Below are positions 7,376 through 30,432 of a stretch of 47,912 bases of DNA, piece by piece (within the stretch, counting starts at the first letter, position 1; each line of letters starts with the position of its first letter). A model generated the notes under the pieces. The model was not told the DNA's origin and made no database searches. It was given only the letters and a program-made list of their open reading frames with translations. The stretch spans positions 1 to 47,912 of the forward strand of contig JAICLJ010000013.1 in assembly GCA_025927575.1 (NCBI GenBank), given 5' to 3'. This stretch comes from Bryobacteraceae bacterium. Its GTDB lineage: Bacteria; Acidobacteriota; Terriglobia; Bryobacterales; Bryobacteraceae. The position numbers and the translations under genes were made by a program.

Positions 7376-7378
7376 GCG

Positions 7379-8560: not shown

Positions 8561-8584
8561 GTTGCGAACGCGCCCGTCTAGATC

Positions 8585-12925: not shown

Positions 12926-13447
12926 CTAAGAATTTTTGGCGCGTTCAATCGGCCCAAGCCACAGCCTGTCCGCATCTACTTTGACGGCATAGCGATCAAG
13001 AGGACGATCGGCGGGCCCGGAGACGACATGGCCGTCCTCGCCAAACACCGAGCCATGACACGGACATACGAACTCTTTTCGATTGGCTTGCCAGTGATAG
13101 GCGCACCCAAGATGAGTGCATCGCGGGGAGAATGCTGTGACATCCATGTGGTCGTCGATCACAACCCATGCCGTAGCCCTTTCGTTTTGTAGCCGCCAAC
13201 CGTCTTCGCGGCTTCGGCTAAACGAGACTTGTTGAGGCGCTCCGGGTTGCAGGTCGGAAATATCGCCTGCATCGGCCCAGCCGGTATCCTCTGCTTGTGG
13301 ATTGCCCAGTAGATATGTGCTGACCGACGTAGCAAATACACCTCCCATAAGAGATGCGAGTGTACAGATGGCTCCGGTAATGAATCCGCGGCGGTTGATT
13401 CCGTTCGATTTCCTCATCGTTTGTTCCATAGCGTTTTTGAGCCTCAT
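12926..13447 (-). CDS. Rieske 2Fe-2S protein of the cytochrome bc-type complex
   Basis: The 173-residue protein carries an N-terminal twin-arginine-like anchor (NRRGFITGAICTLASLMGG) and the two Rieske cluster loops CTHLGC and CPCHGS, each supplying one cysteine and one histidine. Between them and the C-terminus lies the short GPADRPLDRY segment usual after the second loop. It would shuttle electrons from quinol at cytochrome b to the fused c hemes encoded next. The ATG at 13447 is the outermost start; internal ATGs at 13429 and 13417 also precede the Tat signal and cannot be excluded. The 5' region faces the Wzi-like gene, so the two share a divergent control region. Confidence 0.93.
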   Translation of the reverse strand: MRLKNAMEQTMRKSNGINRRGFITGAICTLASLMGGVFATSVSTYLLGNPQAEDTGWADAGDISDLQPGAPQQVSFSRSREDGWRLQNERATAWVVIDDHMDVTAFSPRCTHLGCAYHWQANRKEFVCPCHGSVFGEDGHVVSGPADRPLDRYAVKVDADRLWLGPIERAKNS

Positions 13448-13631
13448 GTTGCCGCCTGAGGCGCCGGCTCGATTACGATGCTATCGGGAAAGCGGTTCTG
13501 AGCTGTCGCGGGCTTGTAAAAGATCGGTAACTTCGGCCTGCCGCCGCACGATTTTACAAAGCTTTTGCAAATTGGCAGCGGGGCATGGTTGGCTAGGAAG
13601 CGCAAACCGGTCACGCTGGGATTGCTTGCCT
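13448..13631. promoter_or_regulatory. Divergent intergenic region with an inverted TGTAAAA/TTTTACA repeat
   Basis: The gap between the Rieske gene (minus) and the Wzi-like gene (plus) contains an imperfect dyad: GCTTGTAAAA at 13512-13521 and TTTTACAAAGC at 13552-13562, separated by about 30 bases. It is a candidate operator or promoter element for both directions. The heptamer matches the phased pair before the export gene. This rests only on visible sequence symmetry. Confidence 0.25.
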
Positions 13632-15359: not shown

Positions 15360-16391
15360 ATGGGCACACTTGCATGCGAGCGGGCAAATCAAGAAGCGGC
15401 ACGAGACGAAGCCGGCGGAGTGTTTCCAACAGCTGATCCTTTGAAGGCTTCCGCTCCGCTGCCGTTTCATCGCGTTCTATTTCCTTATGGCTTCCCTCTT
15501 CATGTGAGGGCGAATCACAATGCGATTCTTCGCGCCGCCGAAACCTGTTGGGGAAGCTATCGCCGTATCTTTAGGGAGCCACCGCTGGAGCTGCGATTTT
15601 TTGTATCGGAGGCTTCGCCGAACCAGGTGCCGCCTGCCCCTGTGTTCCGCGCGCAGGCAAATTTGCTCACAATCGTTGCGGATGGAAATCACTATGGGTG
15701 CTGCGATCTCGCGGCGGGCTTCGGTTTCGCGTATGTCACGGCCACGGCGGTAAATCACGCGGACTATCTGCGCTATCACTTCCTGGAGAGCATGGCGTAT
15801 AGCCTCCTCGATACGCGCCATCTCGCGGCGATACATGCAGCTTGTATTGGTCGGCGCGGCCGTGGCGTTCTATTGGCGGGGGAATCGGGAGCGGGAAAGT
15901 CGTCGCTCGCCTATGCCTGTGCGCGGCGGGGCTGGGCGTACATTTCAGATGACGCAAGCTCAGTGGTCTTGCGGAAGCAAGGCCGCACCGTAGTGGGGAA
16001 TCCGCGCGCATTTCGCTTCCGTCCCGAAGCGACGACGCTCTTCCCCGAATTGAAAGGCCCGCTGCATGCCCACAGAGGGAAACCGACGATTGAGGTGGAG
16101 ACCAAACGGCTGCCACACGTGAAGGTTGCGTATGAATACACGGTGGACCATATCGTCTTCTTAAATCGCTATGCTGGGAATGACGGATCCCCGCAACTGA
16201 CGCCGATTTCGAGCCGGGGTTCCCTGAAACGTCTGTTTCAGAATCCCTGGCCCTCAGAGCTGGCAATAAACCAGCATAGGGATACTGCGATCGAGCGCCT
16301 TCTAACCGCTCCGGCATACGAGCTGCGCTACCGGGACTTCGATGCCGCCATCGATCTGCTCGATACACTTATTCCGGTTGACGAACTATGA
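15360..16391 (+). CDS. HPr-kinase-like P-loop protein of the EPS locus
   Basis: The 343-residue product has a weakly conserved N-terminal half and a C-terminal half like the HprK/P kinase core. The Walker A loop is GESGAGKSS (residues 174-182), preceded by a strand and by HAACIGRRGRGVLLA. An ISDD segment at 195-198 is a Walker-B-like acidic site. HprK phosphorylates a serine on HPr, but stand-alone relatives in exopolysaccharide or peptide-modification loci usually lack a known substrate. The stop overlaps the next gene by four bases (ATGA), so the two are likely translationally coupled. A TTTTACA motif lies at 15299-15305 upstream. No good ribosome site is seen before the ATG. The kinase fold is well supported; the function is not. 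Confidence 0.72.
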   Translation: MGTLACERANQEAARDEAGGVFPTADPLKASAPLPFHRVLFPYGFPLHVRANHNAILRAAETCWGSYRRIFREPPLELRFFVSEASPNQVPPAPVFRAQANLLTIVADGNHYGCCDLAAGFGFAYVTATAVNHADYLRYHFLESMAYSLLDTRHLAAIHAACIGRRGRGVLLAGESGAGKSSLAYACARRGWAYISDDASSVVLRKQGRTVVGNPRAFRFRPEATTLFPELKGPLHAHRGKPTIEVETKRLPHVKVAYEYTVDHIVFLNRYAGNDGSPQLTPISSRGSLKRLFQNPWPSELAINQHRDTAIERLLTAPAYELRYRDFDAAIDLLDTLIPVDEL

Positions 16392-17590
16392 CGCCGTCAG
16401 CGGAAGGCGCTTCCATTCCGGGTTACGCAAAGGCGCTGCTTCAACTCTTAAACTTTGAACACCGGGACGGGAGCGGGCTGGGCCGCTTGAACGATTGCGA
16501 ATGGAGACAACTACTGGAGCTGTGTGATGAATCGCAGCTCACGCTTATCCTGGGGGATCTTGGCCGCTCCTTTCTTCCGCTCTGGGTCAAGGCCCGCATT
16601 CAGAGAAATGCCGCCGGCAACGCGGTTCGCTTCGAGCGACTCATGTTGGCGACTGTCGAAATTGCGCGATGGCTTACGGCAAATTCGATTGAGTTTGCCC
16701 TGCTTAAAGGACACACGCATACGCCTGCGTTTACGGTGGATCCTCTGCTGCGGGCGCAAAACGATATCGACATCTGGTGCCTGCCGGGGGAGGTGCTTCG
16801 CGCGCGCGATGTTTTGACGCATCACGGGTACCGGCATTCCGGCAAATCAAAGGGCCGTCATCTCGATCCGCTGATTCGAGAGTCGAGTTGGACCTGGACA
16901 GGCGATTACTTCGCTCCCGATCTTCCGATTCCAGTCGAACTGCATTATCAGCTTTGGGATCGAGATTTTGAGCGTATTGCCGGTCCGGACGAGCGCGAAA
17001 TCTGGGAGCGGCGGCAAGACTCGCTTCTCGATGGGTATCCGGTTGCCACGCTTGATTTGGTGGATACGCTGGCTTTTGCGGCGCTTCATCTGATGATGCA
17101 CATTTTCCATGGCGACGTTCGTTTGCAGCGTGCTTGGGAAATCGGGCGCTTCCTCGAACATCATGCTCGTGATGACGTGTTCTGGAACCGCTGGCAGAGT
17201 CTGTATACCGCCGAGGCGCGGCAAGTACAAACGATCGCTTTTTGGTTGACCAGTTATTGGTTCGGCTGCAAGCTTCCCAATGTCCTTCAGGCCAACCTGG
17301 AATTTCTTCCATTGAATGTGCGGCTATGGATTTGCCGCTATTGTTTCTCCCCGATCGAGTCGCTGTTCTCCGCGAACAAAGACGAACTGTGGCTGAACCT
17401 GGCCTTAATTCCGTCTCTCCGCGGGAAGATTGGAGTAGCGAGACGCCGGCTGTTTCCTGTTCAAGCCGCAGGCGGTGGAGACAGGGAGCAGCCGGGAGCC
17501 AGATCGTTTGCAGCCAAAGCCGGGCATCACATCGGCTTGCTGCCGCGCACGTTTTGCTCGGGATTCCGATGGCTGCGGATGCAGAAATAG
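16388..17590 (+). CDS. NTP_transf_5-type nucleotidyltransferase-fold protein
   Basis: A 400-residue protein with the signature of the nucleotidyltransferase family PF14907: FALLKGHTHTPAFTVDPLLRAQNDIDIW around residues 98-125. The LKG and the DID carboxylates belong to the polymerase-beta-like fold, and later phrases such as DTLAFAALHLMMHIFHGD are typical of this family. Members recur in exosortase/EPS loci and next to HprK-like kinases and PqqD-like proteins; their substrate is unknown to me. It overlaps the kinase gene by four bases. Its stop lies one base from the end of the convergent small gene. The last 60 residues look poorly conserved. Confidence 0.72.
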   Translation: MTPSAEGASIPGYAKALLQLLNFEHRDGSGLGRLNDCEWRQLLELCDESQLTLILGDLGRSFLPLWVKARIQRNAAGNAVRFERLMLATVEIARWLTANSIEFALLKGHTHTPAFTVDPLLRAQNDIDIWCLPGEVLRARDVLTHHGYRHSGKSKGRHLDPLIRESSWTWTGDYFAPDLPIPVELHYQLWDRDFERIAGPDEREIWERRQDSLLDGYPVATLDLVDTLAFAALHLMMHIFHGDVRLQRAWEIGRFLEHHARDDVFWNRWQSLYTAEARQVQTIAFWLTSYWFGCKLPNVLQANLEFLPLNVRLWICRYCFSPIESLFSANKDELWLNLALIPSLRGKIGVARRRLFPVQAAGGGDREQPGARSFAAKAGHHIGLLPRTFCSGFRWLRMQK

Positions 17591-18161: not shown

Positions 18162-19664
18162 ATGCAAAAGAAAAAGGTCCTGTTCTTCTTCCCCGCGTTC
18201 TCCAGCCAGGAGGCGACCGCCCCGTTAGCGATCCTCGCGGTTGCAACACCGCTGCTCCGCGCTGGATACGAAGTTTGCATCATTGACTCCACCATTACGC
18301 CCGGTTTCAAAAAGCAGGTCTTGAAGGAACTGGCGAATTCCCTTTGCCTTGCTGTGTCGCTGGTTACCGGGCCGATGATCCGCGAAACCTTTGAAATCGC
18401 GAAAGCGGCGAAGGAGGCATATCCGGACAAGCCGGTGGTGCTCGGCGGGTGGCATCCTTCATTGCTGCCTGATCAGACCCTTGCCTGTCCATACGTCGAT
18501 GTGGTGGTGAAGGGCCAAGGCGAAGACGCAATGCTCAAGATCGTGCAGCACATTGAGGCAGGGATGTCCTTCGAAGGGATTGACGGAGCGGGATACAAAG
18601 AAGACGGCCGGCTGAAGTTCAATGCGCCGCGGGCATTGAAGCCGATTCGGGAACTGCCGCCGAAGGCGTATCATCTCGCGGACTTCGATGCTTACGAGCG
18701 AGTCTGCGGGCGGCGATGGGCGATGTATACGTCAAGCCTTGCTTGTCCGTTCAATTGCGCGTATTGCACCAACGAGGGACTCTACGGACGTAAATGGAAC
18801 GCGCTCGAAGCCGACCAGGTCGTCGAGGAAGTCTCAGATTTGGTGAGGCGCTACCGGCTGAGCCTGCTTTGGGTGGTGGACGATAACTTTTTGGTCGACC
18901 GCAATCGGGCGGTGAAAATTGCAGAGGGCCTGATTCGAACCGGTGTCAAATTCGATTGGAGCATTCAGGCCTCTACGAATCTGGTGACGCGTTTCTCGGT
19001 GGAGGAACTGACCCTGCTCCGGCGCGCGGGGCTGTCGCAGGTGGCGCAAGGTGCGGATTCCGGATCACCAAAGGTGTTGCACCTGATGAATAAAGATTTT
19101 CAGAAATTGGAGACGATTTATCAGGCAGCCGACAAGCTGAGCCAGGCCGGAATCCGACCGTCATTCAATTTGATTTTTGGTTTTCCCGGCGAGACCGATA
19201 AAGAACGGCGCGAATCGATTCGCCTGGTGATGAACATCTGCCGCAAATATCCAACGGCTGAGTTCTGGACCAACATCTTTACGCCGTATCCGGGAGCGCC
19301 AATAATGAATCGCGCGTTCGAACTTGGTATCCAGGTACCGAAAAAGTTTGAAGATTGGGCCGATTTCTTTCCACGCTATACGGTGTTGCCGTGGCTCAGC
19401 GGAAGCAAGCATCGGCGCGTGCAGCGTATGCGCGAGTACATGCGCGTGGCATTCAACCGCGTTCCGATCGGCGTTCAAAAAAAGCACCCGATCACGAGGA
19501 TGGTTCATCGCACTATCAGTTTGCCGGCACGATGGCGGCTCGATCACGATATCTACGGCGCGCCGGTGGAGTTGTGGCTCAAGAACCAAGTGAACAGAGT
19601 CCTCCAGCCGCCAAAGCCGAAGGTAGATGCGCAACTGCTTTCCAGCGAGGTTGTGTCTTGTTGA
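18162..19664 (+). CDS. B12-binding-domain radical SAM protein 1
   Basis: A 500-residue class B (cobalamin-type) radical SAM enzyme and the first gene of the operon. The N-terminal Rossmann-like B12-binding domain (residues 1-150) has VVLGGWHPSLLPDQTL and VDVVVKGQGEDAM. The radical SAM core carries the 4Fe-4S motif CPFNCAYC (cysteines 195, 199, 202), then a barrel with VVDDNFLVDRNRA and FGFPGETDKERRESI. The C-terminal extension ends in a WRLDHDIYGAPVELW motif shared with two other proteins of this operon. Such enzymes use methylcobalamin and a 5'-deoxyadenosyl radical to methylate unactivated carbon, or to rearrange C-C bonds. The substrate is unknown. Confidence 0.85.
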   Translation: MQKKKVLFFFPAFSSQEATAPLAILAVATPLLRAGYEVCIIDSTITPGFKKQVLKELANSLCLAVSLVTGPMIRETFEIAKAAKEAYPDKPVVLGGWHPSLLPDQTLACPYVDVVVKGQGEDAMLKIVQHIEAGMSFEGIDGAGYKEDGRLKFNAPRALKPIRELPPKAYHLADFDAYERVCGRRWAMYTSSLACPFNCAYCTNEGLYGRKWNALEADQVVEEVSDLVRRYRLSLLWVVDDNFLVDRNRAVKIAEGLIRTGVKFDWSIQASTNLVTRFSVEELTLLRRAGLSQVAQGADSGSPKVLHLMNKDFQKLETIYQAADKLSQAGIRPSFNLIFGFPGETDKERRESIRLVMNICRKYPTAEFWTNIFTPYPGAPIMNRAFELGIQVPKKFEDWADFFPRYTVLPWLSGSKHRRVQRMREYMRVAFNRVPIGVQKKHPITRMVHRTISLPARWRLDHDIYGAPVELWLKNQVNRVLQPPKPKVDAQLLSSEVVSC

Positions 19665-21169
19665 GCGATCGTCCACGTAAGGTCGTTCTCCTCTCGCCCC
19701 CGTATGAAGGCAAGGTTTTCGGACCGCCGCTAGGGGTGCTAAGCCTCGCTGCGGCTATTCGCGAGCAAGGCTTTCTGCCGGTCATTATCGATGGCGCCAC
19801 TACCTCAAACTTTCTCGATGCCGTCATTCACGAAGTGGTCGATGCGTTCGTCTTTGGCGTATCGGTGTTGACCGGACCAATGATCCACGATGCCATCGCC
19901 GCAAGCCGGGCGGTACGGCGAGCGCGTCCCGATCTGCCGATTATCTTCGGCGGCTGGCATCCCACGCTAACCACCGCTCAGACATTGCGCGAAGATTTCG
20001 TCGATGTTGTCGTGCGTCACCAGGGTGAGCGCACGTTAATGGAAATCTTGCAGCGGCAATTGAAGGGATCGAGCCTCGACCTGGTGCCTGGATGTTGGTT
20101 CAAGCGGAATGGAGAAATTGTCGCGAATGCCGATCGGCCCGCGACGCCACTCAGCGCGTTGCCTTCGCCCGCTTACGATCTGGTCGACTTTGAAGCTTAT
20201 GCTCATGTGACGGGCGGCCGCAAGCTTCCCTACGCCACCAGTATCGGTTGCCCGTACGCGTGCAATTACTGCACGGACATGGTCTTCTATAATCGCCGCT
20301 TCAATCCGCTGGAAGTATCGGGCGTCGTGGATGAGGTCGTGGAACTGGTGCGAACGCTCCAACTGGATGAGATTGCGCTTGTGGATTCCAACTTCCTGGT
20401 TGATACGCACCGTGTCTTGGCCATTGCGCGGGGCTTTGCGGAGAGCAAAGTCAAATTCAAGTGGACGTTTCAAGCTTCAACCGATCTCTTGTGCCGCATC
20501 AGCGATGAAGATGTGCGCCTGCTGGCGGCAAGCGGCGTAAGCCACATCGGATTCGGCACGGAATCGGCATCGCCCGATGTCCTGCGAAAGATGAACAAGG
20601 CTCATCAGAAGATCGGCGATATGTTCGAAGCGGCGCGTAAGTGTCGGAATGCCGGCATTCGCGTGACCTACAACCTGATCTTCGGGTATCCCGGAGAAGA
20701 GGAACAACACCGCAGGGAAACGCTGCGCGTAATGGGAGAAATCGCGGAGCGGTTCGATAATGTGACGTTTTCACCGAACCTTTTCACCCCGTACCCTGGC
20801 GTTCCCATCTGGCCGGAATTAATCGAAGCGGGGTTGCGCGAACCGCAGTCGTTAGAAGAATGGGCATCCGTCGGATTGGGGCAGACGGAGCTGCCCTGGC
20901 TGGACGACAAGGACGGCATGGCGCTTCAGCGCGGAATGTCGTATTTTCTGTTAGCGAACCAGCTCGGCAAAACAGCGCGGAAGTCCCGATCCGCCGCAGG
21001 CAGAACGGGAATGCGCTTGCTGCAGAGACCGCTTCACTGGCGGCTCAAACATCATTTCTTCAATTTCCCCATTGAGCTGTGGGTCTCGATGGCGAAACAT
21101 TGGCTGGTAATGCGCCGGTCCTTATTGACTGGAGATCCGCTCGGGCGCGAATTGCGCGAGGTGCATTGA
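19658..21169 (+). CDS. B12-binding-domain radical SAM protein 2 (paralogue of protein 1)
   Basis: The frame is open far upstream, but protein homology begins at the TTG codons 19658/19661, which overlap the previous stop and follow a GCGAGG ribosome site. From 19658 the product has 503 residues. The B12-binding domain shows IIFGGWHPTLTTAQTL and VDVVVRHQGERT. The radical SAM motif is CPYACNYC (cysteines 198, 202, 205), then VDSNFLVDTHRV and FGYPGEEEQHRRET. The C-terminal tail has WRLKHHFFNFPIELW, matching proteins 1 and 5. It is most similar to protein 1 by eye (VSVLTGPMI versus VSLVTGPMI), indicating duplication within the operon. Likely a methylation or C-C bond chemistry step on an unknown substrate. 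Confidence 0.84.
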   Translation: MLSDRPRKVVLLSPPYEGKVFGPPLGVLSLAAAIREQGFLPVIIDGATTSNFLDAVIHEVVDAFVFGVSVLTGPMIHDAIAASRAVRRARPDLPIIFGGWHPTLTTAQTLREDFVDVVVRHQGERTLMEILQRQLKGSSLDLVPGCWFKRNGEIVANADRPATPLSALPSPAYDLVDFEAYAHVTGGRKLPYATSIGCPYACNYCTDMVFYNRRFNPLEVSGVVDEVVELVRTLQLDEIALVDSNFLVDTHRVLAIARGFAESKVKFKWTFQASTDLLCRISDEDVRLLAASGVSHIGFGTESASPDVLRKMNKAHQKIGDMFEAARKCRNAGIRVTYNLIFGYPGEEEQHRRETLRVMGEIAERFDNVTFSPNLFTPYPGVPIWPELIEAGLREPQSLEEWASVGLGQTELPWLDDKDGMALQRGMSYFLLANQLGKTARKSRSAAGRTGMRLLQRPLHWRLKHHFFNFPIELWVSMAKHWLVMRRSLLTGDPLGRELREVH

Positions 21170-22563
21170 TGCAAATGGATGTCCTAATCACACACAGCAA
21201 TCACCTCTGGTATGACGAAAAGCAGCGGGAGAAGATGCAGCCGTACCCGCCGCTGCAAACGCTGCTTGCTGCCGCCGTGCTTCGCCACGAAGGCCTGCGC
21301 GTTGAGGTTTGCGATGTTACGCTGCGGGCAGCAGAAGCGCGCATTGCACAGGCGATAGCTCGCATGGCCCCGTGCCTCGTGGTCGTTTGCGAAGACGATT
21401 TCAACTTTCTGACAAAGATGTGCCTGCTGCGAAATCGCGAGCTGGCTTTCTCCACGGCAAGAACGGCCAAGGCCTACGGTTGCCGGGTTGCAGTTCACGG
21501 TTCCGATTCCTCCGATCACGTCTCTACGTATGTAAAAGCCGGGTTTGACTATGTGTTGATTGGCGAGGTGGAGGAAACCCTGCGGCAGTTGGCAACGGGA
21601 ACGCCGCCGGAAGGCATCGACGGACTTGCATATGTCGAAACGGAAAGCGGCCGCCTTCGCTTTACCGCGCCGCGCCATGTTCGCGAGCGGCTCGACGATC
21701 TCCCACTACCTGCTTGGGATCTGATCGACATGGAGCCGTACCGTGAAGCATGGCTAAAACATCACGGCTATTTTTCAATGAATCTGGTGTCGAGCAGAGG
21801 TTGTCCTTACCGCTGTAATTGGTGTGCGAAACCGATTTACGGCAACCACTATCGCGTGCGCTCTCCGCGCGCAGTCGCCGAAGAAATGAGTTTTGTGAAG
21901 AAGCGGTTTGCGCCGGAACATATCTGGTTTGCCGACGACATCTTCGCACTTTCCGCTCAATGGACGAGTGAGTTTGCCGCTGCGGTTGAAGATCTGAACG
22001 CTGCTATTCCGTTCAAGATGCAATCTCGCTGCGACCTGATGACGCGCTCCACCGTGGCCGATATAAAGCGCGCTGGATGCGTGGAGGTTTGGATGGGAGC
22101 CGAATCGGGATCCCAACGCGTTCTCAATGCCATGGATAAGGGAATCCGAGTAGAGCAGATCCATCAGGCGCGGCGCAATTTGAACGCCTATGGAATTCGA
22201 GCTTGTTGGTTTCTGCAATTCGGATATCCGGCGGAGGATTGGGAGGATATCGAATCGACGATTCGCATGGTGCGCGCTACACGGCCGCACGACATCGGCG
22301 TCTCAGTTTCCTATCCGCTCCCTGGCACTAAGTTTCATCAGCTCGTTTCCGCGGAACTGGGAAAGAAAGCGAACTGGTCCGAGAGTGGTGACCTGACGAT
22401 GATGTTTCACGGGCCGTTTTCAACGGAATTATACCGGGCGATTGCACATGCACTCCATCTGGAAGTGCGCTCACCCAACAAATTCACCGCGATCGGCGAG
22501 GCATGGGCCGTCGTGGAAACGCTTAGGGCGGCCGAGCGCGCGCGAGTGGAGGTAGCCTCGTGA
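21169..22563 (+). CDS. B12-binding-domain radical SAM protein 3
   Basis: A 464-residue protein. The ATG at 21169 shares one base with the previous stop and has GAGG seven bases upstream. The N-terminal B12-type domain (1-145) is less canonical: it has VAVHGSDSSDHVSTYV where relatives have GG-x-H/E-P. The radical SAM motif is CPYRCNWC (cysteines 212, 216, 219) followed by HIWFADDIFAL, VWMGAESGSQRVLNAMDKG and LQFGYPAEDWEDI. It forms a second subfamily with protein 4, sharing GCPYRCNWC, the AESGSQR/SESGSQR stretch and a proline-glycine segment (VSYPLPGTKF). It lacks the FPxELW C-terminal tail of proteins 1, 2 and 5. Substrate unknown. Confidence 0.83.
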   Translation: MQMDVLITHSNHLWYDEKQREKMQPYPPLQTLLAAAVLRHEGLRVEVCDVTLRAAEARIAQAIARMAPCLVVVCEDDFNFLTKMCLLRNRELAFSTARTAKAYGCRVAVHGSDSSDHVSTYVKAGFDYVLIGEVEETLRQLATGTPPEGIDGLAYVETESGRLRFTAPRHVRERLDDLPLPAWDLIDMEPYREAWLKHHGYFSMNLVSSRGCPYRCNWCAKPIYGNHYRVRSPRAVAEEMSFVKKRFAPEHIWFADDIFALSAQWTSEFAAAVEDLNAAIPFKMQSRCDLMTRSTVADIKRAGCVEVWMGAESGSQRVLNAMDKGIRVEQIHQARRNLNAYGIRACWFLQFGYPAEDWEDIESTIRMVRATRPHDIGVSVSYPLPGTKFHQLVSAELGKKANWSESGDLTMMFHGPFSTELYRAIAHALHLEVRSPNKFTAIGEAWAVVETLRAAERARVEVAS

Positions 22564-23906
22564 ACCTTCTGCTTACGCACGGCTACTTTCTTTTCGACGA
22601 TCCGAAAGAGCTGCAGATCATGAAGCCATATGTGCCGCTGGGGCTTCTTTATCTCTCCTCCCATTTACGCCAGGAGGGATTTGCGGTCGATATCTACGAT
22701 TCAACATTCGGCTCGAAACAGGAGTTGTTCGCTCTTATTCGTCAGGGGCCGCCCGCCGTACTTGGTATTTACGCAAACCTGATGACACGGCTTAATGTGT
22801 TGGAGATCGTGCGATGCGGCCACGAAGCGGGCTGGACTGTGGTGGTTGGCGGACCCGAGCCGGCGAATTACGCAGAAGAATATTTGCGCCACGGCGTGGA
22901 TGTGGTGATCGCCGGCGAAGGTGAACTGGCGCTGGAGCGGCTTTTGCGCTCTAACGGAAACCGCGCCGCGTGGGCAACCATCGGAAGTCTTATCTTCTTT
23001 GCGGACGACGGCTCCCTGATTCGAACAGACTCATCGCCGCTCATCAGGAATTTGGATGCGCAGCCGTGGCCCGACCGAGAGCGCATCGATATGGACCGCT
23101 ATTTGGCGACGTGGCGGGATTTTCACGGCAAATCTTCGATATCCCTGATTACAGCTCGTGGGTGTCCTTACCGTTGTAACTGGTGCAGCCATTCGGTGTA
23201 TGGCACAACTCACAGGCGGCGTTCGCCGGCCGGCGTTGTTGACGAAATTGAATGGATTCTGGATCGCTACAACCCCGATATGCTGTGGCTCGCGGACGAC
23301 GTGTTCACCATTCATCATGGATGGCTATTCGATTTCGCCGCCGAGGTGAAGCGTCGTGGCATCCGCATTCCTTTTGAGTGCATCACGCGGGCTGATCGCT
23401 TGAATGAACAAGTGGCGGAAACCCTTGCGGAACTTCGCTGCTTTCGCGTCTGGATCGGTTCGGAAAGCGGATCGCAGCGCATCCTGGACGCGATGCAGCG
23501 CGGCGTCAAGGTAGAACAGGTAAGAACCGCCGTCCATCTTTGCAAATCCCGCGGCATTCAAACGGGAATGTTTCTGATGTGGGGGTATGACGGCGAGGAG
23601 CTTGAGGACATCGAGCAGACGGTAGACCATGTGAAGACATGCCGGCCGGATGTTTGCTTCACCACCGTTTCTTATCCGATCAAAGGCACGCCTTATTACG
23701 AGCGTGTGAGCCAGCGTTTGGTGGCCATCTCCGGCTGGGATCAGAGCACTGATCGTGACTTGCGTATCCAGGGGCGCCATTCGCGGCGATTCTACCAACA
23801 TGCCGATGAGCTGCTTCGGAATGAAATCGCTGCGGAGCCCGATGCGGTGAAGATTCAGGCCGCGCGAGAGGGCCTCCGGTCTACCTGGAGCGAGATAGAA
23901 GCGTGA
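22560..23906 (+). CDS. B12-binding-domain radical SAM protein 4 (paralogue of protein 3)
   Basis: A 448-residue protein with a GTG start, overlapping the previous gene by four bases (GTGA). The B12-binding domain is clear: VPLGLLYLSSHLRQEGF, VVVGGPEPANYAEEYL, and VDVVIAGEGELALERLL. The radical SAM motif CPYRCNWC lies at cysteines 202, 206 and 209, followed by MLWLADDVFTIHHGW, VWIGSESGSQRILDAMQRG and LMWGYDGEELEDIEQTV. Close similarity to protein 3 through the radical SAM core indicates a second duplicated pair. The layout is that of class B radical SAM methyltransferases such as those acting on hopanoids, phosphonates and antibiotics; the sequence does not say which chemistry applies here. 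Confidence 0.86.
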   Translation: MNLLLTHGYFLFDDPKELQIMKPYVPLGLLYLSSHLRQEGFAVDIYDSTFGSKQELFALIRQGPPAVLGIYANLMTRLNVLEIVRCGHEAGWTVVVGGPEPANYAEEYLRHGVDVVIAGEGELALERLLRSNGNRAAWATIGSLIFFADDGSLIRTDSSPLIRNLDAQPWPDRERIDMDRYLATWRDFHGKSSISLITARGCPYRCNWCSHSVYGTTHRRRSPAGVVDEIEWILDRYNPDMLWLADDVFTIHHGWLFDFAAEVKRRGIRIPFECITRADRLNEQVAETLAELRCFRVWIGSESGSQRILDAMQRGVKVEQVRTAVHLCKSRGIQTGMFLMWGYDGEELEDIEQTVDHVKTCRPDVCFTTVSYPIKGTPYYERVSQRLVAISGWDQSTDRDLRIQGRHSRRFYQHADELLRNEIAAEPDAVKIQAAREGLRSTWSEIEA

Positions 23907-24655
23907 ACATGCGGACAGCAGATAAATCGGGTTTCGATGCGATCGCGGGCAAGTACGACAGATTATGGACAGCGACACCCGTCGGCAGGGGCCAACGATT
24001 GGCAGTGTGGGAGCAAATCGATCGTTTGTTTCATCCGGGCCAATGTGTGTTGGATTTGGGATGCGGTACCGGCGCGGACGCTCTTCACATGCAATCGCGC
24101 GGCATCAATGTCTATGGTGTGGACAGTTCGGAGAGCATGGTCGCCATCGCGAAGACCCGCGGCCTCAGCGCAGATCTGATTTTTATCGAGGAACTGCAGC
24201 AAATACCAGCATTGTTTGACGGCGCCTTGTCGAATTTTGGCGCTCTCAATTGTGTTGCCTCTCTCGACGGAGTGGCCGCCTCGCTAGCCCAAAAGATATG
24301 TGCGGGCGGCTCTGTCGCGCTCTGTTTTATGGGCTCGTTCTGCGTGTGGGAGACAGGCTACTACCTTTTTCGGGGTCAGTGGAAGCAAGCATTCCGCCGC
24401 ATTCGTCGGCGGGTCCGGTCATCGTTTGGAATCGATGTCTTCTATTTTTCGCGGCGCTCGATCCTGGCCGCATTTTCCCGCAACTTTCGCCTCATGGGAA
24501 CGTACGGAATCGGGCTTTTGGTGCCCCCATCCTATGTCACGGGTCTGAGCGATCGAACCGTGGCACGCTTAGCGGAATTGGATAAACGTTGCGCGCATTG
24601 GCCGATGCTACGTAGGCTGGCCGATCACCGCTTATACATCTTTGAGCGGATATGA
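23903..24655 (+). CDS. Class I SAM-dependent methyltransferase 1
   Basis: A 250-residue protein with the class I methyltransferase motif I VLDLGCGTGADALHM (near residues 50-64), followed by the acidic end of strand 2, VYGVDSSESMV. The C-terminal part (FGIDVFYFSRRSILAAF and GIGLLVPPSYV) is longer than in the simplest UbiE-like enzymes and would shape the substrate pocket. It overlaps the previous gene by four bases through a GTG start; an ATG six bases later (23909) is an alternative. It would methylate an O, N or C atom of the product built by the radical SAM enzymes. Acceptor unknown. Confidence 0.82.
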   Translation: MNMRTADKSGFDAIAGKYDRLWTATPVGRGQRLAVWEQIDRLFHPGQCVLDLGCGTGADALHMQSRGINVYGVDSSESMVAIAKTRGLSADLIFIEELQQIPALFDGALSNFGALNCVASLDGVAASLAQKICAGGSVALCFMGSFCVWETGYYLFRGQWKQAFRRIRRRVRSSFGIDVFYFSRRSILAAFSRNFRLMGTYGIGLLVPPSYVTGLSDRTVARLAELDKRCAHWPMLRRLADHRLYIFERI

Positions 24656-25452
24656 ACGCTGAAGCTCACGCCCGCAAGCAATTTTTGGAAGACTACCGCC
24701 GCATAAGGCATGCGGAAGGGCGCGGCTCGGAAGACAGCGCCTACTACCAGGCCCTTCCGTTCCGCGACCTTAGCGGACGCAACGAGGCAATGTGGGCCAT
24801 GCGCGCGAAAACATATTCCTATTTCGAACGGAACATTCTGGCTCCGATAGAAGCGGAATCGCAGAGGCCTCTGGACGTACTCGATCTCGGGGCGGGAAAC
24901 TGTTGGCTTTCATATCGCCTCTCCCTGCGCGGGCATCATCCGATCGCGCTGGACATTTTCGCGGATGGCCGCGATGGACTAGGCGCGGCTCGCCATTATC
25001 CGAATCCGCCGCTGGCGGTTGAGGCGGATTTCGCGCAAATCCCGTTCCTATCCGCCTCGTTCGACCTCGCGATATTTAATGCGTCGTTACATTACTCCAC
25101 CGATTACCTGCGAACTCTGGGCGAAGTACAGCGCTGCCTGCGGCCCTCGGGCTTGTTAGTCATTCTCGATTCGCCGGTGTACCGCGAACAGGAACATGGC
25201 CGTCGGATGACGGAAGAGAAGCACGCCGAATTTCTGAAGCGATACGGATTCCGTTCGGACGCAATTCCGAGCATGGAATTTCTCGATCTGGCGACGCTGC
25301 AAACACTACGTCGCGAACTGGGAATTCATTGGCGCATGTTTAAGCCATGGTACGGCTTGTCATGGCATGCGCGGCCGGTTAAGGCATGGTTGAAACGGCG
25401 CCGGCCGCCCAGCCGATTTTGGATCCTCACCGGAAAATTCGAGTCGTTATGA
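24652..25452 (+). CDS. Class I SAM-dependent methyltransferase 2
   Basis: A 266-residue methyltransferase overlapping the previous gene by ATGA. Motif I reads VLDLGAGNCWLSYRL (about residues 76-90) with IALDIF after strand 2. Motif IV-like FDLAIFNASLHYSTDY and post-motif LRPSGLLVILDSPVY complete the class I fold. The first 60 residues and the end of the protein (MFKPWYGLSWHARPV, then a run of arginines) are specific to this protein and could interact with a lipid or protein partner. It differs clearly from methyltransferases 1 and 3, so the three are not recent copies of each other. Substrate unknown. Confidence 0.82.
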   Translation: MNAEAHARKQFLEDYRRIRHAEGRGSEDSAYYQALPFRDLSGRNEAMWAMRAKTYSYFERNILAPIEAESQRPLDVLDLGAGNCWLSYRLSLRGHHPIALDIFADGRDGLGAARHYPNPPLAVEADFAQIPFLSASFDLAIFNASLHYSTDYLRTLGEVQRCLRPSGLLVILDSPVYREQEHGRRMTEEKHAEFLKRYGFRSDAIPSMEFLDLATLQTLRRELGIHWRMFKPWYGLSWHARPVKAWLKRRRPPSRFWILTGKFESL

Positions 25453-26915
25453 TCGTCTTGCTTCATCCAAGATCGACCAGACCCAGGAATCGGCGCTTTC
25501 CGCTGGCATTACTCTCGCTCGCTGCTGTCTTGGAGCGCAAAGAGCCCTACGCGATTGTAGATGGGAACGCCGATCCCCATCCTGCGCAGACACTCGATCG
25601 GTTAGCGGCAAAGCATCACATCACGTTGCTTGCTGTTTCAGTAATGCCCGGCCCACAGATGGTTGCTGCGATTCCCCTATGTCGCGACTTTCGTTTGAAA
25701 CATCCATCTGTTCCCATTGTGTGGGGCGGCTATTTTGCTTCGTTATATACCGATGCCGCATTGAATGCGAAGTATGTCGACTTCGTCGTTCGGGGTCAAG
25801 GGGAAGAGACGTTTCTTGAGTTGATCGAGGCCCTCCGCGCAACTCGCCGCTACGCGGGCGTCAGAGGGTTGTCGTATAAGGACGATTTCGGTCTTCATGT
25901 GCATAACGCGGAGCGGCCGCTGCGCTCCCCGAACGATTTTCCGTGGCTTCCTTACGATAGCCTTCCGAATGCGGGAAAGTACATCATGCCGACATTTTTG
26001 GGGCGCAGGACGGCGGTTCATCAGGCAAGCATCGGCTGTCCGTTTCGCTGCAATTTCTGCGGTGTTGTACCCATTTTTCAAGGCCGACAGCGCACCGAGG
26101 CACCGGAACGTACGGCGGCTATTCTGGCTCACTTGCAGGAAAAATACCGGATCGATTCAGTGCAGTTCTATGACAACAACTTCTTTCTGAATGAAAGCCA
26201 TACGGTGGCGTTGGCGCAAAAGTTGATTCCGCTGCGGTTGCAGTGGTGGTCCGAGGGGCGCATTGATACGGTAGTGCGCTACTCGGACGAAACATTCGGA
26301 TTGTTGAAGCGCGCGGGAGCGAAGATGATCTTTTTCGGCGCGGAATCCGGATCAGATTGGGTGCTTGAAGAGATGAACAAGCGCATTACCACCGATCAGA
26401 CGTTGGAACTCGCGGCGAAGATCCGGCGTTTCGGCATTGTGCCGGAATTTTCGTTCGTGGTCGGCAATCCGAAGAACCCGGAGCGCGATACGCGGGAAAC
26501 CATTCGATTTATACGGCGTATCAAGCGGGCGAATCCCGACGCGGAAATCATCGTGCAGCACTACATTCCGACACCGCATCCGGACGGCATGTACGGCCAT
26601 GTGGAGGGAAAGATCCAATTCCCGCGTACACCGGAAGAGTGGGCGACGGAGCGCTGGTATAACTTCACCACGCGGCACGATCCAAACGTTGCCTGGCTCC
26701 CACGAAGCATTAAGCGCCGTATCGACAACTTCGAGCTGGTCGTGAATTCCCGCTGGCCGACCATTCAGGACATACAGTTGCCCGGCTGGGGCCGCGCGAT
26801 GCTCCAATGCCTCAGCAGTTGGCGATACATGCTGGGCTTCTATGAATTCCCGGTGGAATTGCAATGGGCGCAGCGGTTCGTTTCTTTACGCAAGCCGCGA
26901 TTGGAAAGCTTATGA
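25449..26915 (+). CDS. B12-binding-domain radical SAM protein 5
   Basis: A 488-residue protein starting at the ATG at 25449, which overlaps the previous stop by four bases. The frame is open further upstream, but the B12-type domain begins here (MIVLLHPRST). The domain has VSVMPGPQMVAA and IVWGGYFASLYTDAAL plus VDFVVRGQGEETF. The radical SAM motif is CPFRCNFC (cysteines 197, 201, 204). QFYDNNFFLNESHTV and FFGAESGSDWVLEEMNK follow. The C-terminal tail contains WRYMLGFYEFPVELQW, clearly related to the tails of proteins 1 and 2. It is therefore a third, more divergent member of that subfamily, placed after two methyltransferases. Substrate unknown. Confidence 0.85.
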   Translation: MIVLLHPRSTRPRNRRFPLALLSLAAVLERKEPYAIVDGNADPHPAQTLDRLAAKHHITLLAVSVMPGPQMVAAIPLCRDFRLKHPSVPIVWGGYFASLYTDAALNAKYVDFVVRGQGEETFLELIEALRATRRYAGVRGLSYKDDFGLHVHNAERPLRSPNDFPWLPYDSLPNAGKYIMPTFLGRRTAVHQASIGCPFRCNFCGVVPIFQGRQRTEAPERTAAILAHLQEKYRIDSVQFYDNNFFLNESHTVALAQKLIPLRLQWWSEGRIDTVVRYSDETFGLLKRAGAKMIFFGAESGSDWVLEEMNKRITTDQTLELAAKIRRFGIVPEFSFVVGNPKNPERDTRETIRFIRRIKRANPDAEIIVQHYIPTPHPDGMYGHVEGKIQFPRTPEEWATERWYNFTTRHDPNVAWLPRSIKRRIDNFELVVNSRWPTIQDIQLPGWGRAMLQCLSSWRYMLGFYEFPVELQWAQRFVSLRKPRLESL

Positions 26916-27592
26916 TTCGCGTCCCAGCGATAGAAGGGCACCGGCTGTGGGCCGAAAGCTATGACCAGGCTCCCAACCCTCTGCTTGCGCTCGAAGCGCG
27001 AACCATGCGGCGCATTTTGGAGCGGGCGCAGCCAAAGCGAGTAATTGATGTTGCATGCGGCACGGGCCGCTGGCTGCTTCGATTGCAACAATCGGGAGTC
27101 AGCGTATTTGGAGTCGACGCTTGCGATGCGATGTTGCTGCAAGCCGCAAAGAGTTCATCTCTTTCCGGGCGGCTGCTGCTGGGCGAAGTCGGTCATCTGC
27201 CCATCCGGGATGGCGCTGCCGACCTCGTTCTTTGCTCGCTGGCGCTCGGCTATTTTCACAACCTGGAGCGCTCAATCGACGAACTGGCCCGCATCTGCAT
27301 GCCGGGCGGGCAAATTGCAATCTGTGATGTACATCCCGAAGCTCTTGCAGCGGGATGGACGCGCGCGTTCACGAGACAAGGAGTGAGGTACGAGATCGAC
27401 CACCACATTTATCAATGGGAGCAAATCGATGGCGCTGCGAGGGCGGCCGGGCTTCACGTTCTGCTGCGCGAAAGCGCGAGATTGGCGGAGCCGGAGCGGC
27501 CATTCTTTCGGAAGGCCGAAAAAGATCATCTCTTCGCAGCGGCCGCAGCGGTTCCCGCGCTGTTTACCGGCGTTTGGGAAAGGCCGTGCTGA
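26912..27592 (+). CDS. Class I SAM-dependent methyltransferase 3
   Basis: A 226-residue UbiE/Methyltransf_11-like protein starting at the ATG at 26912, four bases before the previous stop ends. Motif I is VIDVACGTGRWLLRL (about residues 37-51), followed by VFGVDACDAML. Then come GEVGHLPIRDGAADLVLCSLALGYFHN and MPGGQIAICDVHP, the usual order for this family. It is the most standard of the three methyltransferases in the operon. It would act on oxygen, nitrogen or activated carbon of the pathway product. It overlaps the amidohydrolase start by seven bases. Confidence 0.85.
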   Translation: MIRVPAIEGHRLWAESYDQAPNPLLALEARTMRRILERAQPKRVIDVACGTGRWLLRLQQSGVSVFGVDACDAMLLQAAKSSSLSGRLLLGEVGHLPIRDGAADLVLCSLALGYFHNLERSIDELARICMPGGQIAICDVHPEALAAGWTRAFTRQGVRYEIDHHIYQWEQIDGAARAAGLHVLLRESARLAEPERPFFRKAEKDHLFAAAAAVPALFTGVWERPC

Positions 27593-28755
27593 TCACAGGC
27601 GCGCGCGTGGCGGCGGGCGCCACGGCGGCCATTCGCCGCAGGTTTTCGGTAAACGACGGCCTTATATCGTTCTCGCCGCGCCTGTCGCACCCGCAGCCGC
27701 AAATCGATCTGAGCGGTTTTTTGATTCTTCCCGGTCTCATTAATGCGCACGATCATTTGGAGTTCAATCTGTTCCCCCGATTGGGAGCGGGCCCATATCC
27801 CAACGCGACGGCTTGGGCGAAAGATATTTTTCATCCGCGGCATTCGCCGGTAAAAGAGCAGCTGGCGATTCCCAAAACGCTTCGTTTGTTATGGGGCGGC
27901 TTGAAGAATCTTTTGTCGGGGGTTACGACCGTTGCTCATCACAATAGCTATCAGGCGATTTTCGCCGACCCCTGCTTTCCAGTGCGTGTTCTGAAGCGCT
28001 ACGGGTGGGCACACTCTCTCCAGTTTTCGCCAGATTGGCTGAGTCGATTTTGTGAAACGCCGTCGCGGAATCCATTCATCATTCATGCCTGCGAGGGAAC
28101 CGATGAGGCCGCACGCCAGGAGCTGCGCATTCTGGCAGATGCAGGCGTGCTGCAGGATGCAACTGTTTTGGTGCACGGTGTCGCGCTCGACCGGGCGGGC
28201 GCCGATCGGCTTGCAGAAAGTCGTGCGGCGCTTGTGTGGTGTCCAACCTCGAATCAATTTACGTTAGGGCGCACGATTCATCCTGATGTTTTGCGGTCGC
28301 GATTGTCAATCGCTCTCGGGACCGATTCCGGTATGACGGGCGCCGGCGATTTATGGGACGAGCTCCAGGAAGCAGCTTCCGCAGTAGAGGCGGAACGTCT
28401 TTACGAGATGGTAACGACCGGAGCGGCGCGCATATTAAAGCTGCCGGTCGGATTCGGTGAAATTCGTGACGGAAGCCCGGCCGACTTTCTCGTTGTCGTG
28501 GATGATGGACAAACTCCGGCAGAAGCGCTGGTCGCGGAGCGGCCTCATGCGGTGGTGATCGCCGGTCAGTTGAGGCTGGCCTCATCTCAATTTGCAGCGA
28601 TATGCCGCTGGCCGGGGATACGTGCGCTCCGGCCGGTCGAGGTGGAAGGGAGAGGCTCCTACTTGGCCGCCTTCGATACGCGGATGTTGATAAATGAAAC
28701 GCGAGTGGTATTCGACGGAGACTTGCGGCTTGCGGGAAAGGCGATCGCCGCGTGA
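27586..28755 (+). CDS. Amidohydrolase-superfamily enzyme of the radical SAM operon
   Basis: A 389-residue metal-dependent hydrolase starting at GTG 27586 after a GGGAAAGG site; the upstream part of the frame overlaps methyltransferase 3. It begins with the beta-sandwich typical of SsnA/cytosine-deaminase-like members (LITGARVAAG). Metal-site residues follow: HDH at 55-57, HACEG (histidine 167), HGVALD (histidine 197) and GTDSGM (aspartate 247). A C-terminal composite sandwich has DGSPADFLVV. Family members remove amines from heterocycles or cleave amide/chlorine bonds. Here it implies that an intermediate carries an amide, amidine or amino group that is removed. The specific substrate is unknown. 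Confidence 0.82.
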   Translation: MLITGARVAAGATAAIRRRFSVNDGLISFSPRLSHPQPQIDLSGFLILPGLINAHDHLEFNLFPRLGAGPYPNATAWAKDIFHPRHSPVKEQLAIPKTLRLLWGGLKNLLSGVTTVAHHNSYQAIFADPCFPVRVLKRYGWAHSLQFSPDWLSRFCETPSRNPFIIHACEGTDEAARQELRILADAGVLQDATVLVHGVALDRAGADRLAESRAALVWCPTSNQFTLGRTIHPDVLRSRLSIALGTDSGMTGAGDLWDELQEAASAVEAERLYEMVTTGAARILKLPVGFGEIRDGSPADFLVVVDDGQTPAEALVAERPHAVVIAGQLRLASSQFAAICRWPGIRALRPVEVEGRGSYLAAFDTRMLINETRVVFDGDLRLAGKAIAA

Positions 28756-29723
28756 GCCCAATCATCCACTCCTTGCCTGTGCTTATTCTTTATCCGCACG
28801 CGCGCTGCAATTGCCGTTGCGTGATGTGCGACATCTGGAAGAGGACGGACGCGGACGAACTGGCGCCGGAGCAACTCGACCGCCACCTCGCAGATATCGA
28901 ACGCCTTTCCGTTCGATGGGTTGTATTCTCAGGCGGCGAGCCTTTGATGCATTCCTCATTTTTTCGGCTTTGCGAATTGTTAAAGGCGAGAGCTATCAGA
29001 ATAACGGTGCTCAGCACCGGATTGTTGCTGCGGCGCTTCGCGGAACAGATTGTCCAATATGTGGACGACGTGCTTGTTTCCCTCGACGGGCCGCAGCCGG
29101 TACACGATTCAATTCGCCGCGTGCCTGGAGCGTTCGCGCGATTGCAGGACGGTTTACACGAAATCCACGCGATCAGTCCGTTCTTTCCCATCGCGGCGCG
29201 ATGCACGGTGCAGAGGCTGAATTGTAATGCGATCGTGGAAACCGCGGAGGCGGCCAAATCACTCGGCTTACAATCGATTTCTTTTCTGGCGGCCGACTTG
29301 ACGTCTGAAGCTTTCAATCGTCTCCGTCCGTGGGAGGAAGCGCGCCAAGAACCGGTGGCACTTTCCGTCGATGATATTCCAACGCTTTCAGCGCAATTTG
29401 ACGAGTTGACGGCACTGTGGACCGGTTCCGGATTCGTATTGGAAAGTCGCGAAAAGCTCGAGCGAATTGTCCGGCATTTCCGCTCGCATCTTGGTCTGAG
29501 CGAACCCGAAGCGCCGCGCTGCAACGCGCCCTGGGTATCGGCTGTGGTCGAATCGGATGGCACGGTGCGCCCATGCTTCTTTCAGCGGCCGGTTGGCTCA
29601 CTCAGCGGGCAGAGTCTCTTTAGCGTACTGAACGGCTTCGATGCGCAACAGTTTCGGCAATCACTGGACGTCGCGACAAACCCGATATGCAAGCGATGCG
29701 TCTGCTCGTTGTATTTAACTTAG
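28752..29723 (+). CDS. Radical SAM protein 6, SPASM-like, without B12 domain
   Basis: The last gene of the operon: 323 residues, GTG start, four-base overlap with the amidohydrolase. The radical SAM motif CNCRCVMC lies almost at the N-terminus (cysteines 19, 23, 26), followed by WVVFSGGEPLMHSSF, the SAM-binding GGEP. The C-terminal region has a partial SPASM arrangement: CNAPWVSAVVESDGTVRPC, then CKRCVC near the end, enough cysteines for at least one auxiliary cluster. SPASM proteins often modify peptides or assemble cofactors. Its lack of a B12 domain sets it apart from the other five radical SAM proteins here. No precursor peptide gene was found beside it. Confidence 0.84.
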   Translation: MSPIIHSLPVLILYPHARCNCRCVMCDIWKRTDADELAPEQLDRHLADIERLSVRWVVFSGGEPLMHSSFFRLCELLKARAIRITVLSTGLLLRRFAEQIVQYVDDVLVSLDGPQPVHDSIRRVPGAFARLQDGLHEIHAISPFFPIAARCTVQRLNCNAIVETAEAAKSLGLQSISFLAADLTSEAFNRLRPWEEARQEPVALSVDDIPTLSAQFDELTALWTGSGFVLESREKLERIVRHFRSHLGLSEPEAPRCNAPWVSAVVESDGTVRPCFFQRPVGSLSGQSLFSVLNGFDAQQFRQSLDVATNPICKRCVCSLYLT

Positions 29724-29913: not shown

Positions 29914-30432
29914 GTATCCCGCCCGTTCTTGACTCACGGGATTGGCGCCGCCGTTCTCGAAGGCTGGCAGGTGAACGGGATACTCTCTGTTCTTAGCGGG
30001 ACCCCTCCTAACTTTGACGGAAATGCAGGCGTCCTTTCGGCTCCCGGGAACGGAAACACCTTGAATTATTTTGGCGGCGCCATATCAACCCCCAAAGGCA
30101 ATCCGAAGAACGCACAACCTTGGTTCAACCCTGCCCAGTGCAGTGCAAGCGTCACATCGAATTGCTTTGCCCAACCGGGCAATCTTCAATACGGCAATCT
30201 CGGGCGATATCCGATCAGCGGCGCGGGATCCTGGTCGTTGGATGCCTCTATCTTCCGGACATTCTCGTTCTCGGAACGCTATCAAGTACAACTGCGAGGC
30301 GAAGCCTTCGGCATCGCCAACACACCGATCTGGAACAATCCCGATACGAGTATCAATGACTCGGCTTTCGGCTACGATACTTCCGCCGGCGGGAATCGCA
30401 CGATCCAGTTAGGCGCCAAGGTCATTTTCTAA
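29914..30432 (+). pseudogene. C-terminal remnant of an Oar-type TonB-dependent receptor
   Basis: The frame is blocked by TAA at 29911 and then encodes about 170 residues that match only the end of the large (over 1000-residue) acidobacterial carboxypeptidase-regulatory/TonB-dependent receptors: GWQVNGILSVLSGTP, then NPAQCSASVTSNCFAQPG, GNLGRYPISGAGSWSLDASI and the final barrel strands ending RTIQLGAKVIF. The signal peptide, plug and most barrel strands are absent, and no ATG or ribosome site precedes it. It is best read as a relic and not a functional gene. Sequencing error is unlikely to explain loss of more than 80 percent of the gene. Confidence 0.75.

What the first reader, a model, noticed from the sequence alone, without database searches (positions are those of the whole stretch)
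18162..29723. Ten-gene, fully overlapping operon of five B12-type radical SAM enzymes, three methyltransferases, an amidohydrolase and a SPASM-like radical SAM protein
Every junction overlaps by 1-7 bases, most with four-base ATGA/GTGA overlaps, and several starts are GTG or TTG. This implies strict co-expression and translational coupling over 11.6 kb. Five cobalamin-type radical SAM proteins in one operon is far above what known pathways use. There is no polyketide, peptide-synthetase, terpene, fatty-acid or obvious precursor-peptide gene, so the scaffold must come from elsewhere. It is a strong candidate for an undescribed biosynthetic system making a C-methylated or C-C rearranged product, perhaps tied to the adjacent surface-polysaccharide locus or to membrane lipids.
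Basis: partly seen in the sequence, partly recalled or inferred. Interest (0 to 1): 0.9.

Follow-up and report, generated by a model that had tools for sequence, protein, structure and literature searches.

The report
Acidobacterial B12-radical enzyme operon
A fixed set of ten overlapping genes, rich in vitamin-B12/radical enzymes and methyltransferases, is shared by many soil acidobacteria next to genes for exported sugar polymers, and probably builds or decorates an unknown, radically modified part of a surface glycan or glycosylated product.

Summary
Window 18162-29723 carries ten same-strand genes whose junctions all overlap by 1-7 bases: five B12-binding/radical SAM proteins, three class I methyltransferases, a deaminase-fold amidohydrolase and a radical SAM/SPASM protein. 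The order is conserved far beyond this genome. In one scan of about 85,000 species genomes, all of the best 80 loci are Acidobacteriota. 43 of them keep at least eight of the ten genes collinear, and 18 keep all ten. The five B12/radical SAM genes are ancient, separate clades, not recent duplicates. No curated NCBIfam family reaches its cut-off, and neither the papers I searched nor the PDB hits contain this pathway. No precursor peptide or peptide-recognition (PqqD) gene accompanies it. Best reading (confidence 0.5): a dedicated pathway that makes a radically C-methylated and/or deoxygenated building block, or decoration, of an exported glycan or glycoconjugate, with kinase and nucleotidyltransferase tailoring. 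Substrate and product are unknown. A new variant of known enzyme kinds in an undescribed, widely conserved pathway.

The parts
18162..19664 (+). g1: B12-binding/radical SAM protein, 500 aa, CPFNCAYC motif at 195; most conserved member (about 60-84% identity across families)
19661..21169 (+). g2: B12-binding/radical SAM protein, 502 aa (TTG start); nearest in-genome relative is g1 (39%); the most often missing gene (12 of 37 complete loci)
21169..22563 (+). g3: radical SAM protein with weak B12-binding domain; profile and predicted fold closest to AprD4 (1,2-diol dehydratase on paromamine), then MgmA, OxsB and TsrM
22560..23906 (+). g4: B12-binding/radical SAM protein, 448 aa; closest solved relative MgmA (9ccb), then OxsB
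23903..24655 (+). g5: class I SAM-dependent methyltransferase, 250 aa
24652..25452 (+). g6: class I SAM-dependent methyltransferase, 266 aa; missing in 6 of 37 complete loci
25449..26915 (+). g7: B12-binding/radical SAM protein, 488 aa; used as the probe for the wide searches
26912..27592 (+). g8: class I SAM-dependent methyltransferase, 226 aa
27586..28755 (+). g9: amidohydrolase of the TRZ/ATZ - MTA/SAH (adenosine-type) deaminase fold; HxH, HxxE, H and D metal/catalytic residues conserved; model pLDDT 93
28752..29723 (+). g10: radical SAM/SPASM protein, 323 aa; best solved relative BlsE (cytosylglucuronate decarboxylase), N-terminal part only
15360..16391 (+). HprK-like kinase (Walker A conserved); the only Hpr_kinase_C match in this genome; recurrent partner of the operon
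16388..17590 (+). NTP_transf_5 (PF14907) protein, 4-base overlap with the kinase gene; recurrent partner
13302..15290 (+). Wzi-type capsule assembly outer-membrane protein (ORF extends upstream of the likely true start); adjacent polysaccharide context
4650..11188 (-). Polysaccharide export/polymerisation genes: Wzy-like, Wzx flippase, Wzz, SLBB/Poly_export; context

Best explanation
The operon is a dedicated acidobacterial pathway that makes or decorates a building block of an exported glycan or glycoconjugate. Inferred steps: a sugar-like or otherwise polyhydroxylated substrate from general metabolism is altered at non-activated carbons by the five B12/radical SAM enzymes (C-methylation, and possibly a radical dehydration by the AprD4-like g3) and by the SPASM enzyme g10. 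The three class I methyltransferases add N-, O- or C-methyl groups. The deaminase-fold g9 removes an amine/amidine from an intermediate, or clears the SAM by-products 5'-deoxyadenosine and SAH. [quoted passage not shown] Glycosyltransferases and a Wzx/Wzy-type route assemble and export it. Shown: gene content, conserved order, overlapping junctions, separate ancient clades, partner genes, polysaccharide neighbourhood, absence of a local precursor peptide. Inferred: the substrate, the reaction of every enzyme, and that the product is attached to the glycan.
For: Collinearity: 43 of 80 loci keep at least 8 genes in order and 18 keep all ten. Partner genes in the flanks: HprK in 27 and NTP_transf_5 in 21 of 80 operon loci, 0 of 20 control stretches. 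Core glycan genes in 29 of 56 loci with at least 6 kb of flank vs 1 of 20 controls (Fisher p = 1.4e-4). HprK-like genes in 14 of 16 operon-positive vs 28 of 135 operon-negative relatives (p = 2e-7). In L072 and L079 a Wzx-type flippase and the NTP_transf_5 gene sit between g8 and g1 on the same strand. Wzy_C lies next to g1 in L023-L025. A glycosyltransferase ORF begins close to the g10 end in L020. Divergent versions in other classes carry GT4, FkbM methyltransferase, NAD epimerase, PIG-L deacetylase, and in L117 also HprK and NTP_transf_5. g3 is closest in fold to AprD4, a sugar-modifying enzyme; g10 is closest to BlsE, a sugar-nucleoside enzyme. Kinase + nucleotidyltransferase phosphoglycosylation precedent: PMC8498205.
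Against: 17 of 56 loci with good flanks show none of the glycan or partner genes within 10 kb, so the link is frequent but not universal. The polysaccharide locus could be a neighbour by island clustering rather than a functional partner; the HprK correlation may reflect the same islands. The representative queries for the glycan count were partly taken from the operon loci themselves, which favours them over the controls. The control set is small (20 stretches from 7 genomes). Closest-relative assignments rest on about 20% identity and cannot fix reactions. No nucleotide-sugar synthesis gene is constant.
Confidence: 0.5

Rival explanations
1. The operon makes a free small-molecule secondary metabolite (for example an aminocyclitol-, nucleoside- or heterocycle-like antibiotic or signal), tailored by kinase, nucleotidyltransferase, glycosyltransferase, sulfotransferase or P450, and only sits in genomic islands that also hold polysaccharide genes.
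For: P450 in 10 and sulfotransferase in 6 of 80 loci; closest solved relatives include antibiotic enzymes AprD4, OxsB, TokK, CysS and BlsE; patchy distribution (16 of 151 relatives); g9 has a nucleobase/triazine deaminase fold.
Against: No dedicated small-molecule exporter or resistance gene was among the recurring neighbours identified; Wzx/Wzy-type and glycosyltransferase genes recur instead.
Confidence: 0.27
2. A ribosomal peptide (RiPP) pathway, e.g. a phosphoglycosylated peptide with B12 radical C-methylation, the precursor gene being very short or elsewhere.
For: HprK-like kinase, NTP_transf_5 and sulfotransferase are tailoring enzymes of lasso peptide clusters (PMC8498205); several B12 radical SAM families and SPASM proteins mature peptides; weak ScmE/ScmC similarity.
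Against: No conserved small ORF within 4 kb of the operon genes across 81 loci; every recurrent candidate looks like an antisense shadow of a larger gene. PqqD never lies near the operon, and 7 of 14 operon-positive genomes have none. No peptidase or cyclase is constant.
Confidence: 0.1
3. A membrane-lipid or hopanoid modification pathway (C-methylated or cross-linked lipids).
For: g1-g4 and g7 have sub-threshold similarity to HpnJ, HpnR, BchE and the ladderane-associated rSAM family; Acidobacteria make unusual lipids (own knowledge); PEMT-like gene in L072.
Against: All scores are far below the family cut-offs (e.g. HpnJ 137 vs 577.6 bits; rSAM_ladder_B12 105 vs 360); the same sub-threshold hits are shared by all five proteins. 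No recurrent lipid synthesis gene nearby.
Confidence: 0.08
4. For g9 alone: it does not act on the product but deaminates SAH and/or 5'-deoxyadenosine, relieving by-product inhibition of the nine SAM-dependent enzymes of the operon.
For: Top fold and profile matches are adenosine/MTA/SAH-type deaminases; NCBIfam hits include 5'-deoxyadenosine deaminase and MTA/SAH deaminase; B12 radical methylases use two SAM per methyl transfer (PMC12846815).
Against: Only about 18% identity and a shortened fold (TM 0.65-0.74); triazine and guanine hydrolases score about as well; g9 is missing from split cassettes such as L072 and L079.
Confidence: 0.35

Closest known systems
Aminoglycoside radical SAM enzymes AprD4 (diol dehydratase) and GenK-type B12 methylases
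   Same: B12-type/radical SAM architecture on sugar substrates; AprD4 is the best fold and profile match of g3
   Different: About 20% identity; no aminocyclitol genes seen; the NCBIfam AprD4 model scores 88 against a cut-off of 500
Phosphoglycosylated lasso peptide pathway (pseudomycoidin: HPr-kinase homolog + nucleotidyltransferase)
   Same: HprK-like kinase and nucleotidyltransferase pair, with occasional sulfotransferase
   Different: No precursor or PqqD/RRE near the operon, no cyclase or protease gene among the neighbours scanned; lasso pathways as described have no B12 radical SAM set
SynChlorMet cassette (ScmA-F)
   Same: SPASM radical SAM with weak ScmE/ScmF similarity; HprK-like protein with weak ScmC similarity
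   Different: ScmE 56 vs 400 bits, ScmC 27 vs 125 bits; five B12 radical SAM proteins; no ScmA-type precursor found
BchE / HpnJ / ApyD / rSAM_ladder_B12 families
   Same: Same B12-binding + radical SAM domain order; best NCBIfam hits of g1-g4 and g7
   Different: All scores about one sixth to one third of the curated cut-offs; no bacteriochlorophyll, hopanoid or ladderane genes among the annotated neighbours
HprK-related kinase A (HPr-rel-A) systems in EPS/exosortase loci
   Same: HprK-like kinase near polysaccharide genes
   Different: 50 vs 200 bits; PqqD partner absent nearby

Membership tests
Conserved operon (orthologous cassette) | Gene order kept beyond this genome | tested here: met
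   43 of 80 loci with at least 8 collinear same-strand genes, 18 with all ten; split and shortened versions also exist
Cobalamin-dependent radical SAM enzymes (g1, g2, g4, g7) | N-terminal B12-binding domain plus CxxxCxxC radical SAM core | tested here: met
   Above Pfam cut-offs for both domains; motif present
Cobalamin-dependent radical SAM enzymes (g3) | B12-binding domain over cut-off | tested here: inconclusive
   Window copy 23.8 vs 32.1 bits; 20 of 22 orthologs match, best 2e-11; fold nearest to AprD4, then to B12-dependent MgmA, OxsB and TsrM
B12 radical SAM C-methylases | Transfer of a methyl group to carbon or phosphorus | not testable with these tools
   Needs enzyme assay
BchE, HpnJ, HpnR, ApyD, KedN5, BzaD and other NCBIfam equivalogs | Score above the curated cut-off | tested here: not met
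   No model listed reaches its cut-off for any of the ten proteins (best 25 shown per protein)
Lasso / phosphoglycosylated peptide (RiPP) | Precursor peptide gene | tested here: not met
   No conserved small ORF within 4 kb across 81 loci; a distant gene is not excluded
Lasso / phosphoglycosylated peptide (RiPP) | PqqD-type recognition element in the cluster | tested here: not met
   PqqD matches only on other contigs or far away; none in 7 of 14 operon genomes
Lasso / phosphoglycosylated peptide (RiPP) | HPr-kinase homolog plus nucleotidyltransferase | tested here: met
   15360-17590; recurs in 27 (HprK) and 21 (NTP_transf_5) of 80 loci
Wzx/Wzy-type polysaccharide locus | Flippase, polymerase/ligase and glycosyltransferases nearby | tested here: met
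   In the window and enriched around the operon, 29 of 56 vs 1 of 20 controls; not in every locus
TRZ/ATZ - MTA/SAH deaminase family (g9) | HxH, HxxE, H, D active-site set and fold | tested here: met
   Invariant residues; best folds are adenosine/triazine deaminases, E 1.6e-18
MTA/SAH deaminase (as an activity of g9) | Deamination of SAH, MTA or 5'-deoxyadenosine | not testable with these tools
   Only about 18% identity
HPr(Ser) kinase / HprK-related kinase A | NCBIfam cut-off | tested here: not met
   32 vs 240 and 50 vs 200 bits; Pfam Hpr_kinase_C just over cut-off, 34.6 vs 33.3

The most novel reading that the evidence does not exclude
An acidobacteria-specific class of glycans or glycosylated metabolites whose building block is assembled by up to six sequential radical SAM reactions and three methylations, then joined through a phosphodiester made by an HprK-type kinase and an NTP_transf_5 enzyme: a radical-chemistry glycan pathway not described before.
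Probability: 0.3. Interest if true: 0.85.

Novelty: new variant of a known kind. Interest (0 to 1): 0.66.

Why it matters
Cobalamin radical SAM enzymes do difficult C-C bond chemistry, and characterised pathways use one to three of them (own knowledge: thienamycin and bottromycin three, gentamicin two, cystobactamid one). A pathway with five, fixed in order across an abundant soil phylum and present in cultivable genera (Edaphobacter, Granulicella, Terriglobus, Silvibacterium), gives a concrete route to new radical enzymes and possibly to the unknown chemistry of acidobacterial surface glycans. It also offers a test bed for how HprK-like kinases and NTP_transf_5 proteins are used outside peptides.

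Tried and rejected
Precursor peptide search by clustering of 5,755 small ORFs: only shadows of larger genes. PqqD partner: absent nearby. Cobalamin riboswitch or other RNA element: no Rfam match in the window. tRNA-borne island: no tRNA in the window. Sigma-70-like promoter at the operon start: promoter-like sites not above shuffles (3 vs 5.9 expected). Plasmid carriage of g7: no match in 72,556 plasmids. Literature on such an operon: five searches on the operon, its enzymes or its host group gave no paper describing it; a search for papers naming several B12 radical SAM enzymes in one pathway found none. Recent tandem duplication of the B12 enzymes: rejected, each forms its own clade with support 0.99-1.0. 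The ribose-binding Glu of MTA/SAH deaminases was considered as a test for g9, but the profile alignments do not cover it well enough to decide.
Full report
OBSERVATION. The ten ORFs lie at the stated coordinates on the + strand, with every junction overlapping by 1-7 bases. Domain content is as described: g1, g2, g3, g4 and g7 are B12-binding plus radical SAM; g5, g6 and g8 are class I methyltransferases; g9 is an amidohydrolase; g10 is radical SAM + SPASM. One qualification: the B12 domain of g3 is below the Pfam cut-off in this copy (23.8 vs 32.1 bits), although 20 of 22 orthologs match the domain. All five carry one CxxxCxxC motif. No listed NCBIfam equivalog reaches its cut-off for any of the ten.

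CONSERVATION. An amidohydrolase (g9) search hit 16 of 151 related genomes, and in most of these the surrounding genes are the same set in the same order. One scan of about 85,000 species genomes with a g7 alignment found 288 relatives; the best 80 are all Acidobacteriota, among them Edaphobacter, Granulicella mallensis, Terriglobus albidus and Silvibacterium bohemicum. Of these 80 loci, 43 hold at least eight genes collinear on one strand and 18 hold all ten; among 37 loci spanning g1 to g10, g2 is missing in 12 and g6 in 6. The taxonomy of the remaining 208 relatives was not listed, so restriction to the phylum is likely but not proven. Divergent, rearranged versions occur in other classes of the phylum. 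Overlapping junctions are conserved too, e.g. the 4-base xTGA overlap at g6/g7 in 48 of 54 loci. In a tree of 103 sequences each of g1, g2, g3, g4 and g7 is monophyletic (support 0.986-1.0), so the five enzymes are old and presumably have distinct tasks.

SUBCASSETTES. In several Terriglobia loci the set is split: 10-5-4-3-2 on one strand and 7-8-(NTP_transf_5)-(Wzx flippase)-1 on the other (L072, L079). Others hold 1-7-8 alone within the fetched stretch (L088, L095). This suggests two functional modules, {1, 7, 8} and {2, 3, 4, 5, 10}; inference.

PARTNERS. In the nearest relative G001 the same pair lies directly downstream of g10. In flanks of 80 operon loci HprK occurs in 27 and NTP_transf_5 in 21, against 0 of 20 control 20-kb stretches from related genomes. 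At genome level HprK-like genes occur in 14 of 16 operon-positive and 28 of 135 operon-negative relatives (p = 2e-7). Core polysaccharide genes occur in 29 of 56 loci with enough flank versus 1 of 20 controls (p = 1.4e-4). In the window itself the operon follows a Wzi gene and a Wzy/Wzx/Wzz/SLBB export locus. The control sample is small, the query sequences were partly drawn from the operon loci, and 17 of 56 loci show none of these genes, so the link is strong but not absolute.

NO PRECURSOR PEPTIDE. Clustering of 5,755 small ORFs within 4 kb of operon genes gave only what look like antisense shadows of larger genes. PqqD-type genes are never close to the operon, and half of 14 operon-positive genomes lack any.

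ENZYME CLUES. g3: the profile and the predicted structure (pLDDT 84) are closest to AprD4, a radical SAM diol dehydratase on the aminoglycoside paromamine, then to MgmA, OxsB and TsrM. g1 is nearest to TokK, g4 to MgmA, g7 to AprD4. g9: the predicted structure (pLDDT 93) is an adenosine/triazine-type deaminase with the full HxH, HxxE, H, D set. It may deaminate an intermediate or clear SAH and 5'-deoxyadenosine, the by-products of the other nine enzymes. g10: the best solved relative is BlsE, a decarboxylase of a sugar-nucleoside. All similarities are about 20% identity or partial, so they suggest substrate class at most.

MECHANISM. I favour a pathway for a radically modified sugar-like building block or decoration of an exported glycan or glycoconjugate (0.5). 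The kinase/nucleotidyltransferase pair has a precedent in pseudomycoidin, where a kinase phosphorylates a serine hydroxyl and the nucleotidyltransferase adds hexoses to that phosphate (PMC8498205); use on a non-peptide is inference. Rivals: a free secondary metabolite (0.27), a RiPP (0.1), a lipid modification (0.08).

NOVELTY. The enzyme kinds are known. The combination, its fixed order and its breadth match nothing in NCBIfam or in the papers searched; the paper library holds open-licence papers only, so absence there is weak evidence. The statement that five exceeds known pathways rests on my own knowledge of characterised clusters (one to three such enzymes).

Noticed in passing
window 29929-30432 (+): Fragment of an acidobacterial outer-membrane beta-barrel protein (OMP_b-brl_4, last 150 of 838 profile positions) directly behind the operon; looks like the 3' remnant of a deleted gene, and in L019 a full-length copy lies at the same place.
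   Followed up: partly
L072:13454-15049, L079:10895-12451: A Wzx-type flippase gene is embedded in the split cassette between the NTP_transf_5 gene and g1.
   Followed up: yes
L078, L088, L090, L095: Shortened cassette with g1, g7 and g8 together (in L090 g2-g3-g4 follow several genes downstream), suggesting a separable module.
   Followed up: partly
L030:8457-14072: Divergent partial version (g5-like, g3, g6, g9 orthologs) with a GTP cyclohydrolase II gene among them; could hint at a nucleotide-derived substrate or be an ordinary riboflavin gene.
   Followed up: no
G135:C193 and G147:C3: HprK-like matches lie in long open frames (725 and 687 aa) a few kb from the operon, perhaps tandem or fused kinase domains.
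   Followed up: no
L033:14220-15350, L089:33-1217: Cytochrome P450 genes recur next to the operon (10 of 80 loci).
   Followed up: partly
window 17592-17939 (-): Small, apparently exported protein encoded on the opposite strand between the NTP_transf_5 gene and g1; not seen as a recurrent partner.
   Followed up: no
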